From positions 434,001 to 498,000 of the forward strand of contig NZ_FMIZ01000006.1 of assembly GCF_900095865.1 (NCBI RefSeq): DNA of 64,000 nt, read 5' to 3'. The notes beneath the pieces were generated by a model. That model did not search any database, had not been told where the DNA came from, and was given only the letters and a program-made list of their open reading frames with translations. The DNA is from Massilioclostridium coli. Its GTDB lineage: Bacteria; Bacillota; Clostridia; Oscillospirales; Ruminococcaceae. The translations under genes were made by a program, and so were the position numbers. Numbering within the stretch: position 1 is the first letter of the stretch; each line of letters opens with the position of its first letter. Of the stretch, positions 27,457-56,269 are shown in pieces.

Positions 27457-27554
27457 CTAGCCTCTCCCCTTTCTTTTATACCTCATTATAAATTCTATTT
27501 TTCCCTATGTCAACGATTTATTTAGTTATTTTGCACAATTAACAATCTATTGTA

Positions 27555-37677: not shown

Positions 37678-37706
37678 TTGACAAAGGGGAGATATTCCGA
37701 TATAAT
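37678..37706 (+). promoter_or_regulatory. Consensus promoter of the alaS T-box transcript
   Basis: Exact TTGACA (37678-37683), 17-bp spacer, exact TATAAT (37701-37706). Confidence 0.9.
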
Positions 37707-42436: not shown

Positions 42437-42943
42437 TTAATCGTAAAAAAGGGTGAGCCACACCCGTTTATTTTGTTGTTTGGCATACTGGATGGTTTTT
42501 TCTGTCCCTCCTGGGGTGCCATTCCAGATTGCTAGGATGATGTCAGCGTGGTCAACCATATACTGGTTTCTTTTTAGCATGCAATTGGAGGTGTAGTATT
42601 TTTGCAACACAGTTTGTGTATCGCATTGGGATAAAATCATTTCATACCGATTTTGCAATGATTTTGACCAGCGTTTCGATTGGGATTCACAGGGGATGGC
42701 ACACTCCAGTTGAATGTGAGGGTAGTTTTGTTTTAGTTGCAGCACAATTTCAGCGGCAAACAAATCCACCCCCAATGCCATTCCAGTAATAAAGTATGTT
42801 ACGTTTTGTTGGGTAATCAAATATTCAATGCGTTCTCGCAATATCTTTTTTAGGTTCTTACATCTATCATCTTGTTCGTTAAAACCAAACGAAAATTTTT
42901 GTGGTCGATGCCCGGTAAAACAACATGTAAGGATTTGTTCCAT
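42437..42943 (-). CDS. YpsA/DUF1273-like SLOG-family protein
   Basis: 168 aa. Rossmann-like SLOG fold, nucleotide-sugar or nucleotide ligand binding. Family features: CCFTGHRPQKF at the N-terminus, ITGMALGVDLFAAEIVLQLK, AIPCESQSKRW and the end WNGTPGGTEKTIQYAKQQNKRVW with the PGGT motif. Bacillus YpsA is linked to cell division, and other SLOG proteins act in defence or second-messenger sensing. It begins 1 bp after the XRE regulator stop, with its ribosome site inside that gene, so the two are translationally coupled. Confidence 0.82.
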   Translation of the reverse strand: MEQILTCCFTGHRPQKFSFGFNEQDDRCKNLKKILRERIEYLITQQNVTYFITGMALGVDLFAAEIVLQLKQNYPHIQLECAIPCESQSKRWSKSLQNRYEMILSQCDTQTVLQKYYTSNCMLKRNQYMVDHADIILAIWNGTPGGTEKTIQYAKQQNKRVWLTLFYD

Positions 42944-42944
42944 G

Positions 42945-43265
42945 TCAATCCCCTTTTATCATCAGTTCTACAAGGTTTAAAATGCGTTTTTGTTCTTCTA
43001 TTGGTAGAGTATGTAATTCTTCAGAAAGTTTAGAGGATTGATAGTTATTGGAATATAGAAGGACATCAGAAAAAATAGCGTCAGCAGAGGTTTCCAGTCC
43101 ATTTAGAATTTTAATCAGGTTTTCACATCGTGGAAAGGATGCGCCCCGTTCCACCGTGGAAATATAGTTTGTAGTTAAACCCACCTTTTCCGCAAACTGT
43201 TCTTGCGTTAATCCAAGTTGTTCCCTGCGCTCTTTGATGCGCTTGCCAATCCGTTTATCAATCAT
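42945..43265 (-). CDS. XRE-family HTH transcriptional regulator
   Basis: 106 aa. Cro/C1-type HTH (~5-60): IGKRIKERREQLGLTQEQFAEKVGLTTNYISTVERGASFPRCENLIKIL. The C-terminus is a short helical segment, perhaps for dimerisation. Coupled to the SLOG gene downstream and probably controlling this unit. An amber-inactivated paralog lies at 32285-32596. Confidence 0.9.
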   Translation of the reverse strand: MIDKRIGKRIKERREQLGLTQEQFAEKVGLTTNYISTVERGASFPRCENLIKILNGLETSADAIFSDVLLYSNNYQSSKLSEELHTLPIEEQKRILNLVELMIKGD

Positions 43266-43410: not shown

Positions 43411-43437
43411 AGAAAACGCCTGCTGTCCACAGGCGTT
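43411..43437 (-). terminator. Terminator of the membrane protein gene
   Basis: AACGCCTG / CAGGCGTT stem that begins at the stop codon and is followed on the minus strand by a TTCTTTTTTT tract. Confidence 0.75.
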
Positions 43438-44122
43438 ATTTTTCAGGTTGTCCCATCTGAATGTTGGATAAACTGCTTTCATATTCCCTTTGTAAGGCAA
43501 TATATTTTTGATATTCTTGTTTGTATTTTATTTTGGTTTTCCGATAGGGAAAAATCAGTATCAGGATTAAAATGCTTCCAATCACGCCATCAACAATGAA
43601 GATTTGCTTCATAATAGAGGAAATTTCATTTTGTTTTTTTTCTAATTGAAAGATAGTAGTGTTTCCTTTTTGTATTTTATTCCAATATTTTGTCCGAAAT
43701 ATTCCGCGTTTTTGATATTCAACTTTGATCGTTGAACCAGGAGTAATCTCTTTTAAAAACATTTCACGGGTAATATTTTTTGGACTTTCACTCATATAAA
43801 AGTCGTTTTCTGTAATAATATTATAGGTTGTAGTCCAGCCAATGCGAGAAAATATATAGGGTTCTTTTACAGTAATAGTGTCTGTCTGGTAAGGGGAAAA
43901 ATAGATTGAATTGGATAGAACAAAGCAACACCATACAATGATAACGATGATTCCGATTAATTCAATTCGTTTGATAAAACGCAGTGTAGAAAAAAGGCTA
44001 TCGCATTTCTTTTTCTGGTCGTGTACTGGGCGCAACGCCTGGTAGTTCTGTTTTTGCTTTAACTTTTTCTCTCTTATTTTTTTGGACGCCATTTTCTTCT
44101 TTCTCTTTCTATTGTTTTTCAT
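43436..44122 (-). CDS. Unknown two-TM membrane protein
   Basis: About 228 aa from the ATG at 44122; the frame starts at a TTG (44137), and a third option is the ATG at 44092. No good ribosome site marks any of them. Very basic N-terminus (KNNRKRKKKMASKKIREKKLKQ), a transmembrane helix (~55-75), an extracytoplasmic domain of ~100 residues, a second helix (~180-200) and a cytoplasmic tail. Not recognised. It borders the duplicated small-RNA locus, whose + strand promoter overlaps its 5' end. Confidence 0.65.
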   Translation of the reverse strand: MKNNRKRKKKMASKKIREKKLKQKQNYQALRPVHDQKKKCDSLFSTLRFIKRIELIGIIVIIVWCCFVLSNSIYFSPYQTDTITVKEPYIFSRIGWTTTYNIITENDFYMSESPKNITREMFLKEITPGSTIKVEYQKRGIFRTKYWNKIQKGNTTIFQLEKKQNEISSIMKQIFIVDGVIGSILILILIFPYRKTKIKYKQEYQKYIALQREYESSLSNIQMGQPEK

Positions 44123-44130
44123 ACAAATAA

Positions 44131-44159
44131 TTGACAACTGCCAATAAACTGGTTATAAT
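44131..44159 (+). promoter_or_regulatory. Perfect consensus promoter with no protein gene downstream
   Basis: TTGACA (44131-44136), 17 bp, TATAAT (44154-44159). The next + strand protein gene is 7.6 kb away; a terminator at 44216-44255 defines a ~90-nt transcript. Confidence 0.85.
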
Positions 44160-44165
44160 AAAGTT

Positions 44166-44255
44166 AGAAAAGGCATTACCGGATAGACGGTTTGCCCCAG
44201 TATTTTTAAGTTAAAAAGATAATCGCTGGGGAATGTGGGCGGTTATCTTTTTTTA
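44166..44255 (+). ncRNA. Candidate small RNA (~90 nt)
   Basis: Runs from the predicted start of the consensus promoter to an 11-bp terminator hairpin (AAGATAATCGC / GCGGTTATCTT, 44216-44249) with seven T. A CCCCAG (44195-44200) can pair with CTGGGG (44226-44231), a fold that excludes the terminator stem, so the RNA could be an attenuator-like switch. No ORF. Confidence 0.6.
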
Positions 44256-44384
44256 TTGCTATGTAGAATACGATCAATCAGCAATAACAATATTGCGAAC
44301 ATAACCAGATATTCTATGGGCAACACCCCATTTCTGGGGCAAGATTCAACCGCCTACCGTTTTACAGGTAATGTCTTACGACAA
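44211..44384 (-). ncRNA. Candidate small transcript A with a hydrophobic mini-ORF
   Basis: Starts downstream of the minus-strand promoter at 44385-44413 and ends at the terminator shared with the + strand RNA (44216-44249). It contains a possible 27-codon ORF with a GTG start, reading LPIEYL, VMFAILLLLIDRILHS and NKKR: one hydrophobic segment with a basic tail, as in type I toxins. A hairpin CCCC AGAAAT GGGG lies just before it. The related unit B is at 44500-44655. Confidence 0.45.
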
Positions 44385-44413
44385 ATTATAACAAATTTTT
44401 ACTGCCAATGCAA
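44385..44413 (-). promoter_or_regulatory. Promoter of small transcript A
   Basis: TTGCAT (44408-44413), 17 bp, TATAAT (44385-44390) on the minus strand. Confidence 0.7.
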
Positions 44414-44499
44414 TACAGGAAACAGATTGATTCCAAAGGAACACAGTTGGTCTGTTTGTGTGGGGCATGATTGGATAGGCGATTGATCCCATTGTTGAT

Positions 44500-44655
44500 C
44501 GGTGAAAAAGATAGCCGCTACATCTGAACTGTAGCGGCGTCTTTTTTGCTACATAGAATAGGATGAGTTGAGGATACTGCCAGATATTCTACGGGCAAGT
44601 TCATTTCTAAAGCAAGCTCAAACTTGCCCGCTGTTTGTAAGAATATCTTATAATA
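44500..44655 (-). ncRNA. Candidate small transcript B, duplicate of A
   Basis: Downstream of a TATAAG -10-like box. The RNA folds into a long hairpin: AAGATATTCT pairs with GAATATCT and inside it GGGCAAGTT pairs with AACTTGCCC, which masks an ATG. That ATG opens a 28-codon frame (MNLPVEYLAV, SSTHPILCSKKD, AATVQM). Compared with A it conserves LP-I/V-EYL and IL-S-KK with an 18-nt in-frame deletion. It ends at the terminator at 44506-44547 (GCCGCTACA / TGTAGCGGC). Confidence 0.45.
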
Positions 44656-44777
44656 AACCAATAAAATACCACATAATTCTCATACCATACTATATTATTT
44701 TGAAATTTTCTGTGTTTGTTTTATATTTCCCTACATGATCCATTTTATTGTTTATAGAACCAAAGTTATTTTTATTG

Positions 44778-56107: not shown

Positions 56108-56136
56108 TTGACAAAACGTTGTAGGGCTGTTATAAT
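56108..56136 (+). promoter_or_regulatory. Consensus promoter of tRNA-Lys
   Basis: TTGACA (56108-56113), 17-bp spacer, TATAAT (56131-56136), both perfect. Confidence 0.9.
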
Positions 56137-56193: not shown

Positions 56194-56269
56194 GAGCCAC
56201 TAGCTCAGTTGGCAGAGCATTTGACTTTTAATCAAAGGGTCCGGAGTTCGAATCTCCGGTGGCTCACCA
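56194..56269 (+). tRNA. tRNA-Lys(UUU)
   Basis: 76 nt with encoded CCA. Acceptor arms GAGCCAC / GTGGCTC, D-loop AGCTCAGTTGGCAGAGCA, anticodon stem TTTGA / TCAAA with loop CTTTTAA (anticodon TTT), T-arm CCGGAGTTCGAATCTCCGG. Confidence 0.97.

What the first reader, a model, noticed from the sequence alone, without database searches (positions are those of the whole stretch)
44131..44675. Tandemly duplicated small-RNA / mini-ORF locus between a membrane protein gene and the pho operon
About 550 bp without a normal gene hold a perfect consensus + promoter with a ~90-nt transcript, a good minus promoter (TTGCAT-17-TATAAT), two terminator hairpins that work on both strands, and two copies of a unit with the same element order. 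Each minus transcript has a possible 27-28-codon ORF starting LP(I/V)EYL; the copies differ by an in-frame 18-nt deletion. Copy A is hydrophobic with a basic tail; in copy B the start codon is buried in a long hairpin. Converging transcripts over one terminator plus a hydrophobic peptide recall type I toxin-antitoxin loci, but this pattern matches none that I know.
Basis: partly seen in the sequence, partly recalled or inferred. Interest (0 to 1): 0.72.

Follow-up and report, generated by a model that had tools for sequence, protein, structure and literature searches.

The report
Half-dead bacterial toxin–antidote RNA pair
A short stretch of a gut bacterium's DNA holds a worn-out copy of a toxin–antidote pair (a tiny membrane peptide apparently kept silent by a small RNA) that belongs to a family common in Clostridia and also found on phages.

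Summary
The locus is real and the type I toxin-antitoxin reading is largely right. Copy A has convergent promoters, a shared terminator, a predicted ~88-nt plus-strand RNA and a minus-strand frame for a hydrophobic peptide with a basic tail. The same-genus genome has three related stretches, two in tandem; the frame is strongly conserved. A covariance model of the RNA matches 70 of 198 family genomes and 77 of 246 class genomes, the looser cut-off admitting some chance hits. Units also lie on phage contigs. Of 88 relatives' peptides scanned, 16 match Hol_Tox and 7 PepG1 (type I toxin) weakly to clearly; the window's own peptide matches neither, and no Rfam family reaches its cut-off here.

The antitoxin's 5' end repeats the toxin leader's own anti-Shine-Dalgarno arm, and the two change together among relatives. 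Likely mechanism: the RNA covers the toxin's ribosome site in trans and pairs at the terminator.

In the window the system seems to be decaying. Copy B is a relic. The antitoxin looks intact, as expected if the toxin is lost first. Transcription and toxicity are untested.

The parts
44131..44159 (+). promoter of the antitoxin RNA, TTGACA-17-TATAAT
   Evidence: 12 of 12 consensus; in 116 of 133 relatives' units the antitoxin promoter scores at least 11 of 12
44167..44254 (+). predicted antitoxin RNA, copy A (start taken as 7 nt after the -10)
   Evidence: model R1: 73.2 bits, E 4.7e-15, all 88 positions (the sequence was one of the 71 used to build R1); fold z -4.24
44193..44200 (+). TGCCCCAG in the antitoxin: copy of the toxin leader's anti-Shine-Dalgarno arm
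   Evidence: identical 8-mer in leader and antitoxin
44385..44413 (-). toxin promoter A, TTGCAT-17-TATAAT
   Evidence: coordinates read
44349..44359 (-). conserved toxin-leader element CGGTAGGCGGT
   Evidence: shared with relatives
44324..44341 (-). potential hairpin that pairs CCCC with the Shine-Dalgarno GGGG
   Evidence: stem of 5 or more pairs in 110 of 112 leaders against 64.2 in shuffles; not the minimum-energy fold of this leader when folded alone
   Evidence: 10 synonymous against 3-4 non-synonymous codon changes to the two same-genus copies; 0 of 20000 random placements keep as many residues
44213..44252 (.). shared terminator hairpin A; holds the toxin stop codon and the antitoxin 3' end
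   Evidence: inverted repeat; across relatives 4 of 10 predicted stem pairs have compensatory changes
44459..44547 (+). relic of antitoxin B
   Evidence: 18.1 bits, E 0.287 with R1
44518..44598 (-). relic of toxin frame B (LPVEYL...), net 15 nt shorter in the core
   Evidence: coordinates read
44505..44547 (.). terminator hairpin B

Best explanation
The locus is a chromosomal type I toxin-antitoxin unit (A) with a decayed tandem duplicate (B). Shown by sequence: a minus-strand frame for a short hydrophobic peptide with a basic tail is conserved in relatives; a plus-strand promoter drives a predicted ~88-nt RNA towards it; both end in one hairpin; the antitoxin 5' end is a same-sense copy of the toxin leader, including the arm that can pair with the toxin's Shine-Dalgarno sequence, and the two co-vary across relatives. 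Inferred: both RNAs are made; the toxin leader hides its own ribosome site in a hairpin; the antitoxin carries the same arm and blocks that site in trans, while the complementary terminators start or hold the duplex; free peptide would harm the membrane. Inferred for this window: the toxin is silent or nearly so, because the conserved start position reads ATA and the upstream TTG is too close to the Shine-Dalgarno sequence; the antitoxin is still made. A toxin can be lost safely before its antitoxin, not the other way round, so this is an expected first step of decay.
For: Same-genus relatives at E 7e-31, 1.3e-17 and 9.5e-10, with ATG-started peptides MEYLIMMAILLLLIDRILHNNKKR, MEYLIMMAILLLLIDRILQYNKKR and MEYLVLLTIILLLIERILNNGTKKK. 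Selection on the frame. 134 units in 112 loci. Antitoxin alignment of 71 units with 11 invariant columns; terminator covariation. Prevalence with R1: 70 of 198 genomes of the family at E <= 1e-4, 77 of 246 of the class at E <= 1e-3. Of 88 peptides scanned, 16 match Hol_Tox (best 1.6e-7), 7 PepG1 (best 2.6e-5) and 7 ComI (best 5.6e-5), all at E <= 0.1. Co-variation of antitoxin and Shine-Dalgarno sequence: duplex energy of cognate pairs -16.5 against -15.1 kcal/mol, 0 of 20000 permutations as good, 64 representatives; shared run 5.18 against 3.88 nt, 0 of 20000, 109 units; sister pairs with different Shine-Dalgarno arms: own partner better in 25, swapped better in 4, tied in 22 of 51, p 5e-5. 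Tandem arrays in 16 of 112 loci, spacing mostly 289-472 nt.
Against: The window peptide itself matched no family, and tblastn with a 24-aa relative found nothing in phage or plasmid records, though so short a query is insensitive. The toxin leaders of the window and of G001 do not fold better than shuffles (z -0.30 and -0.35), and the minimum-energy fold of the window leader is not the expected Shine-Dalgarno hairpin. Specificity is partial: on average 39% of non-cognate antitoxins were predicted to bind a given Shine-Dalgarno window better than the cognate one. Translation from ATA at a low level cannot be excluded. The ATA could be an assembly error; no reads or second strain were available.
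Confidence: 0.76

Rival explanations
1. Copy A is still a working toxin gene whose ATA (or TTG) start keeps translation very low, so the unit is attenuated rather than dead.
For: The frame has no stop and is strongly conserved against the same-genus copies; both promoters, the antitoxin and the terminator look intact.
Against: Of the 134 extracted units only 4 lacked an accepted start within 14 nt of a Shine-Dalgarno-like motif; of these 2 (L093, L176) have TTG at the place, L113 has TTT and the window ATA (by reading). The conservation may simply predate the change.
Confidence: 0.2
2. The plus RNA has become, or always was, a regulatory RNA with its own targets, and the peptide frame is irrelevant.
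For: Perfect promoter and stable fold beside a toxin without a standard start. Among the 14 hits outside the class that I read, 5 kept an antitoxin-like stretch without a recognisable toxin frame.
Against: Across relatives the RNA co-varies with the Shine-Dalgarno sequence of the adjacent toxin, so the toxin mRNA is its usual target. No search for other targets was made.
Confidence: 0.08
3. Chance: promoter-like and hairpin-like sequence in an AT-rich intergenic region plus a chance frame.
For: Promoter-like sites in the region number 8 against 5.3 (sd 2.5) in shuffles, not unusual as a count.
Against: Same-genus homologues at E 7e-31 and the covariance-model hit are far outside chance, and so is the codon pattern.
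Confidence: 0.01

Closest known systems
BsrG/SR4 of Bacillus subtilis (toxin mRNA in Rfam RF01412; type I)
   Same: The Rfam model aligns, below its cut-off, over leader, Shine-Dalgarno hairpin and the CC-rich stretch after the stop on the toxin strand of several members.
   Different: 16-26 bits against a cut-off of 55; unrelated microRNA models reached similar or higher scores in the same scans. The window's peptide does not match Hol_Tox. That SR4 pairs mainly over the 3' overlap is recalled, not tested.
Fst / par of plasmid pAD1 (type I)
   Same: Convergent promoters, bidirectional terminator, a second contact over the ribosome site, a leader stem hiding the Shine-Dalgarno sequence (PMC7472228, passages seen).
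   Different: In par the second contact comes from direct repeats read in opposite directions; here the 5' ends are inverted repeats, same sense in both RNAs (I1), so the contact comes from a copy of the anti-Shine-Dalgarno arm. No Fst model among the Pfam and NCBIfam matches at E <= 0.1; the window peptide lacks the PXXXG motif (by reading).
SprA1/SprA1AS and SprA2/SprA2AS of Staphylococcus aureus (type I)
   Same: Genes overlap at 3' ends but the antitoxin acts with its non-overlapping 5' domain on the ribosome site (PMC6393315, abstract and passages seen).
   Different: The source describes partial pairing of the 5' regions; I saw nothing there on an antitoxin arm copied from the toxin leader. 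Sequence relation to the RNAs was not tested.
SprG1/SprF1 (PepG1 toxin), ComI and Hol_Tox peptides
   Same: Peptides on the same RNA scaffold match PepG1 (7 of 88), ComI (7 of 88) and Hol_Tox (16 of 88) at E <= 0.1.
   Different: MEYL-type peptides like the window's matched none of these.
Clostridioides difficile type I systems (CD2517.1-RCd8 and others)
   Same: Convergent overlapping toxin and antitoxin genes, hydrophobic toxin with charged tail, phage association (PMC6563280, abstract and passages seen).
   Different: Toxins of 34-59 aa and, according to that review, no sequence homology to other known type I toxins; not compared here by sequence.

Membership tests
Type I toxin-antitoxin system | short hydrophobic peptide with a conserved coding frame | tested here: met
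   frame conservation for copy A and same-genus relatives; the start codon at the conserved place is absent in the window
Type I toxin-antitoxin system | convergent antisense RNA that overlaps the toxin mRNA | tested here: inconclusive
   promoters, terminator and model hit support it; no transcript data
Type I toxin-antitoxin system | antitoxin complementary to the toxin ribosome site or mRNA, and co-varying with it | tested here: met
   for the family; 8-nt identity of arm and antitoxin in the window
Type I toxin-antitoxin system | over-expressed peptide is toxic and the RNA relieves it | not testable with these tools
   needs the bench
Hol_Tox (PF16935) | peptide reaches the curated Pfam score | tested here: not met
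   window and MEYL peptides: no match; other peptides on the scaffold do reach it, e.g. 44.5 bits against 23.3
BsrG RNA (RF01412) | Rfam gathering score 55 bits | tested here: not met
   16.2 bits on the window locus; best seen in relatives 26.3
Fst/par | Fst-type peptide | tested here: not met
   no Fst model among matches at E <= 0.1 for 88 relatives or for the window peptide
Fst/par | direct repeats at the toxin ribosome site and the antitoxin 5' end | tested here: not met
   the 5' ends are inverted repeats, 22 nt, 77% (I1)
Fst/par | convergent promoters and bidirectional terminator | tested here: met
   (sequence only)

The most novel reading that the evidence does not exclude
The antitoxin is kept although its own toxin is silent because it works as an anti-addiction or immunity RNA: it would neutralise toxins of the same code that arrive on phages or other mobile elements. 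Phage contigs do carry members of the window's own peptide subfamily (MEYLVILVIVLVLIERILDNKKK on L216 and L217). More generally, the Shine-Dalgarno arm would act as a recognition code, drifting in step in toxin and antitoxin and separating neighbouring units of tandem arrays (in L182, one unit uses CCCCC in both RNAs and the next two CCTCC in both).
Probability: 0.12. Interest if true: 0.75.

Novelty: new variant of a known kind. Interest (0 to 1): 0.5.

Why it matters
It exposes a large family of small toxin-antidote loci in gut Clostridia that no Rfam family covered in these scans and that, by the crude rules used, gene callers would easily miss because the peptides are 20-35 residues long. 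The way the antitoxin copies the toxin leader's own anti-Shine-Dalgarno arm gives a simple, testable recognition code, and tandem arrays offer natural tests of cross-talk. The window shows a likely intermediate of how such addiction loci die: toxin first, antidote later.

Tried and rejected
Rejected: the LP start (Shine-Dalgarno spacing). Rejected: a second unit in the same genome. The R1 hit at C1:1113439 (28.4 bits, E 7.8e-4) is the terminator after a long surface-protein-like gene, without a toxin frame; so E near 1e-3 admits chance hits. In the class search 56 of 246 genomes have a best E <= 1e-5 by my count of the listing. Pattern-only searches (35 of 247 genomes) include clear chance matches, and the backward control pattern also matched, so I do not use that figure for prevalence. 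Same-place comparison with the other genome of the genus gave nothing: its best match to the window's PhoR-like kinase is 30% identical and far from its units. A degenerate DNA pattern for the window's own peptide found nothing in viral contigs. tblastn of a 24-aa relative found nothing in phages or plasmids. The 14 out-of-class hits (all 14 such genomes, one locus each), by reading: 5 with a complete toxin frame (L231, L232, L233, L237, L238), 2 with the frame shifted near its end (L236, L244), 5 antitoxin-like without a recognisable toxin (L234, L235, L239, L240, L243), 2 terminator only (L241, L242). Of the 30 best loci of the family search a rule found a toxin frame in 24, the window's own among them without a Shine-Dalgarno sequence; the 6 misses were not examined. 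Rows dropped before counts: L169 and a duplicate call of L107 among 136 units; L094 at 7806 for lack of sequence; leaders outside 25-48 nt (112 of 133 kept). The 88 peptides were a hand-made non-redundant choice from 129 distinct ones, of which one search printed the first 120. Literature: no listed paper announces this family in its title or in the start of its abstract; those searches cover only open PMC papers, and I opened six of the papers, passages only (for one, PMC11264685, the search for passages found none).

Full report
What is there. The 545-bp stretch between a small membrane-protein gene (43436-44098, no Pfam match at cut-off) and the PhoR-like kinase gene holds two head-to-tail units. 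Unit A has a perfect sigma-70 promoter on the plus strand and a good one on the minus strand, facing each other across an inverted repeat with T-runs on both sides. The predicted plus RNA, 44167-44254, folds at z = -4.24. The minus frame reads ...IEYLVMFAILLLLIDRILHSNKKR and its stop lies inside the terminator stem.

Homologues. blastn in 61 genomes found three stretches in the one other genome of the genus held, two of them in tandem. Each encodes, in the same place, a peptide that starts with ATG: MEYLIMMAILLLLIDRILHNNKKR, MEYLIMMAILLLLIDRILQYNKKR, MEYLVLLTIILLLIERILNNGTKKK. Between copy A and the two tandem copies there are 10 synonymous and 3 or 4 non-synonymous codon changes; dN is 0.12 and 0.16 and dS could not be computed (saturated); 0 of 20000 random placements of the same changes keep as many residues. 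The frame was therefore under selection as a peptide. Weaker hits in other genera have the same layout: leader CGGTAGGCGGT, hairpin with the Shine-Dalgarno sequence, short hydrophobic frame ending in lysines and arginines, TAACCGCC, shared terminator, convergent RNA with a strong promoter.

The family. From all loci held I extracted 136 units, 134 after removing one doubtful and one double row, in 112 loci; 16 loci hold two or more units within 800 bp, mostly 289-472 apart. The L066 unit of the window's family is letter for letter that of Massiliimalia timonensis (L110), so the family lies near that genus (inference). The antitoxin alignment (71 units) has 11 invariant columns; its terminator stem shows compensatory change in 4 of 10 pairs. 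The model R1 built from it matches 70 of 198 genomes of the family at E <= 1e-4, with 22 matches in the richest (all that were scored), 77 of 246 of the class at E <= 1e-3 (56 at E <= 1e-5, my count) and 20 of 249 of the phylum at E <= 1e-4, 14 of them outside the class. In the window's own genome only copy A matches well; a second hit at E 7.8e-4 was looked at and rejected. A viral collection holds 24 stretches with the pattern; two of them (L216, L217) encode MEYLVILVIVLVLIERILDNKKK, close to the window's peptide, and L217 also holds portal, terminase and capsid genes.

Peptide kinship. Of 88 non-redundant peptides from these units, 16 match Hol_Tox (best E 1.6e-7), 7 PepG1 and 7 ComI, at E <= 0.1. 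The MEYL subfamily, the window's included, matches none of these. The link of the window to known toxins thus runs through the shared RNA scaffold, not through its own peptide. The BsrG toxin mRNA model aligns over leader, Shine-Dalgarno hairpin and stop region of L001, L028, L034, L078, L139 and L176, but at 16-26 bits against a cut-off of 55, a level that unrelated models also reach in the same scans.

Mechanism. In 110 of 112 leaders of suitable length the Shine-Dalgarno sequence can pair with an upstream arm over 5 or more pairs; shuffled leaders give 64.2 on average, 71 at most. The antitoxin 5' end repeats the toxin leader in the same sense: at the DNA level the two RNA starts are inverted repeats (I1), and the antitoxin carries its own copy of the anti-Shine-Dalgarno arm (8 identical letters, TGCCCCAG, in the window). 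This copy tracks the toxin: shared runs of 5.18 against 3.88 nt in non-cognate pairs and duplex energies of -16.5 against -15.1 kcal/mol, with 0 of 20000 permutations as good in either test. In a test that controls for kinship, 51 disjoint pairs of similar units with different Shine-Dalgarno arms, the own partner fits better in 25, the swapped one in 4, with 22 ties (p 5e-5). Against a strict code: on average 39% of non-cognate antitoxins are predicted to bind as well or better than chance would need, that is better than the cognate one; and the leaders of the window and of the relative fold no better than shuffles, the window's without the expected hairpin in its best fold. My reading: the antitoxin occupies the toxin's ribosome site with the same arm that the leader uses on itself, while the complementary terminators join the RNAs at their 3' ends. 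This works like par/Fst (PMC7472228, passages) and SprA1/SprA2 (PMC6393315, abstract and passages), but with a leader-copy instead of direct repeats.

State of the window locus. By a crude rule 130 of 134 units have an accepted start within 14 nt of a Shine-Dalgarno-like motif; of the 4 exceptions two have TTG in place, L113 has TTT and the window ATA (by reading; the extraction favours units with a start). Copy B has lost, by reading, the antitoxin -10, the Shine-Dalgarno sequence, start and stop, and 15 nt of the core; its RNA scores 18.1 bits. The antitoxin of A is intact to the model (73.2 bits; it was one of the training sequences). Outside the class, 5 of 14 hits read were antitoxin-like without a recognisable toxin and 2 had shifted frames; weak hits are enriched for decay, so this is no rate. 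Since losing the antitoxin first should be harmful, an intact antitoxin beside a disabled toxin is the expected intermediate. An anti-addiction role of the surviving RNA is the boldest reading that the data leave open.

Novelty. No Rfam family reached its cut-off at this locus. Eight literature searches in open PMC papers listed no paper that announces such a family in title or abstract start; I read passages only, and subscription papers are not covered. I therefore file it as a new variant of a known kind, type I toxin-antitoxin.

Noticed in passing
window 42437-43265 (-): A gene for a YpsA-type SLOG protein (Pfam E 6.4e-33) next to a helix-turn-helix regulator gene (HTH_3, E 5.1e-13), just beyond the membrane-protein gene.
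   Followed up: no
window 27485-27513 (-), 37678-37706 (+), 56108-56136 (+): Three further perfect TTGACA-17-TATAAT promoters; the last lies just upstream of the tRNA-Lys gene at 56194.
   Followed up: no
L029 370-490: At the third locus of the same-genus genome a second antitoxin-like promoter and 5' end sit directly upstream of the intact antitoxin, as if half a unit had been duplicated.
   Followed up: no
L182 772-1393 (oriented coordinates): Three tandem units with nearly the same peptide but two Shine-Dalgarno codes, each matched by its own antitoxin.
   Followed up: partly
L074 and L135: Arrays of four units (L074 with one on the other strand) with different peptide subfamilies but one antitoxin arm type, CTCCC.
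   Followed up: no
L188 3199 (oriented coordinates): A unit whose extracted peptide departs from that of its near-identical relative L172 at the start, probably a frameshifted toxin beside an intact-looking antitoxin.
   Followed up: no
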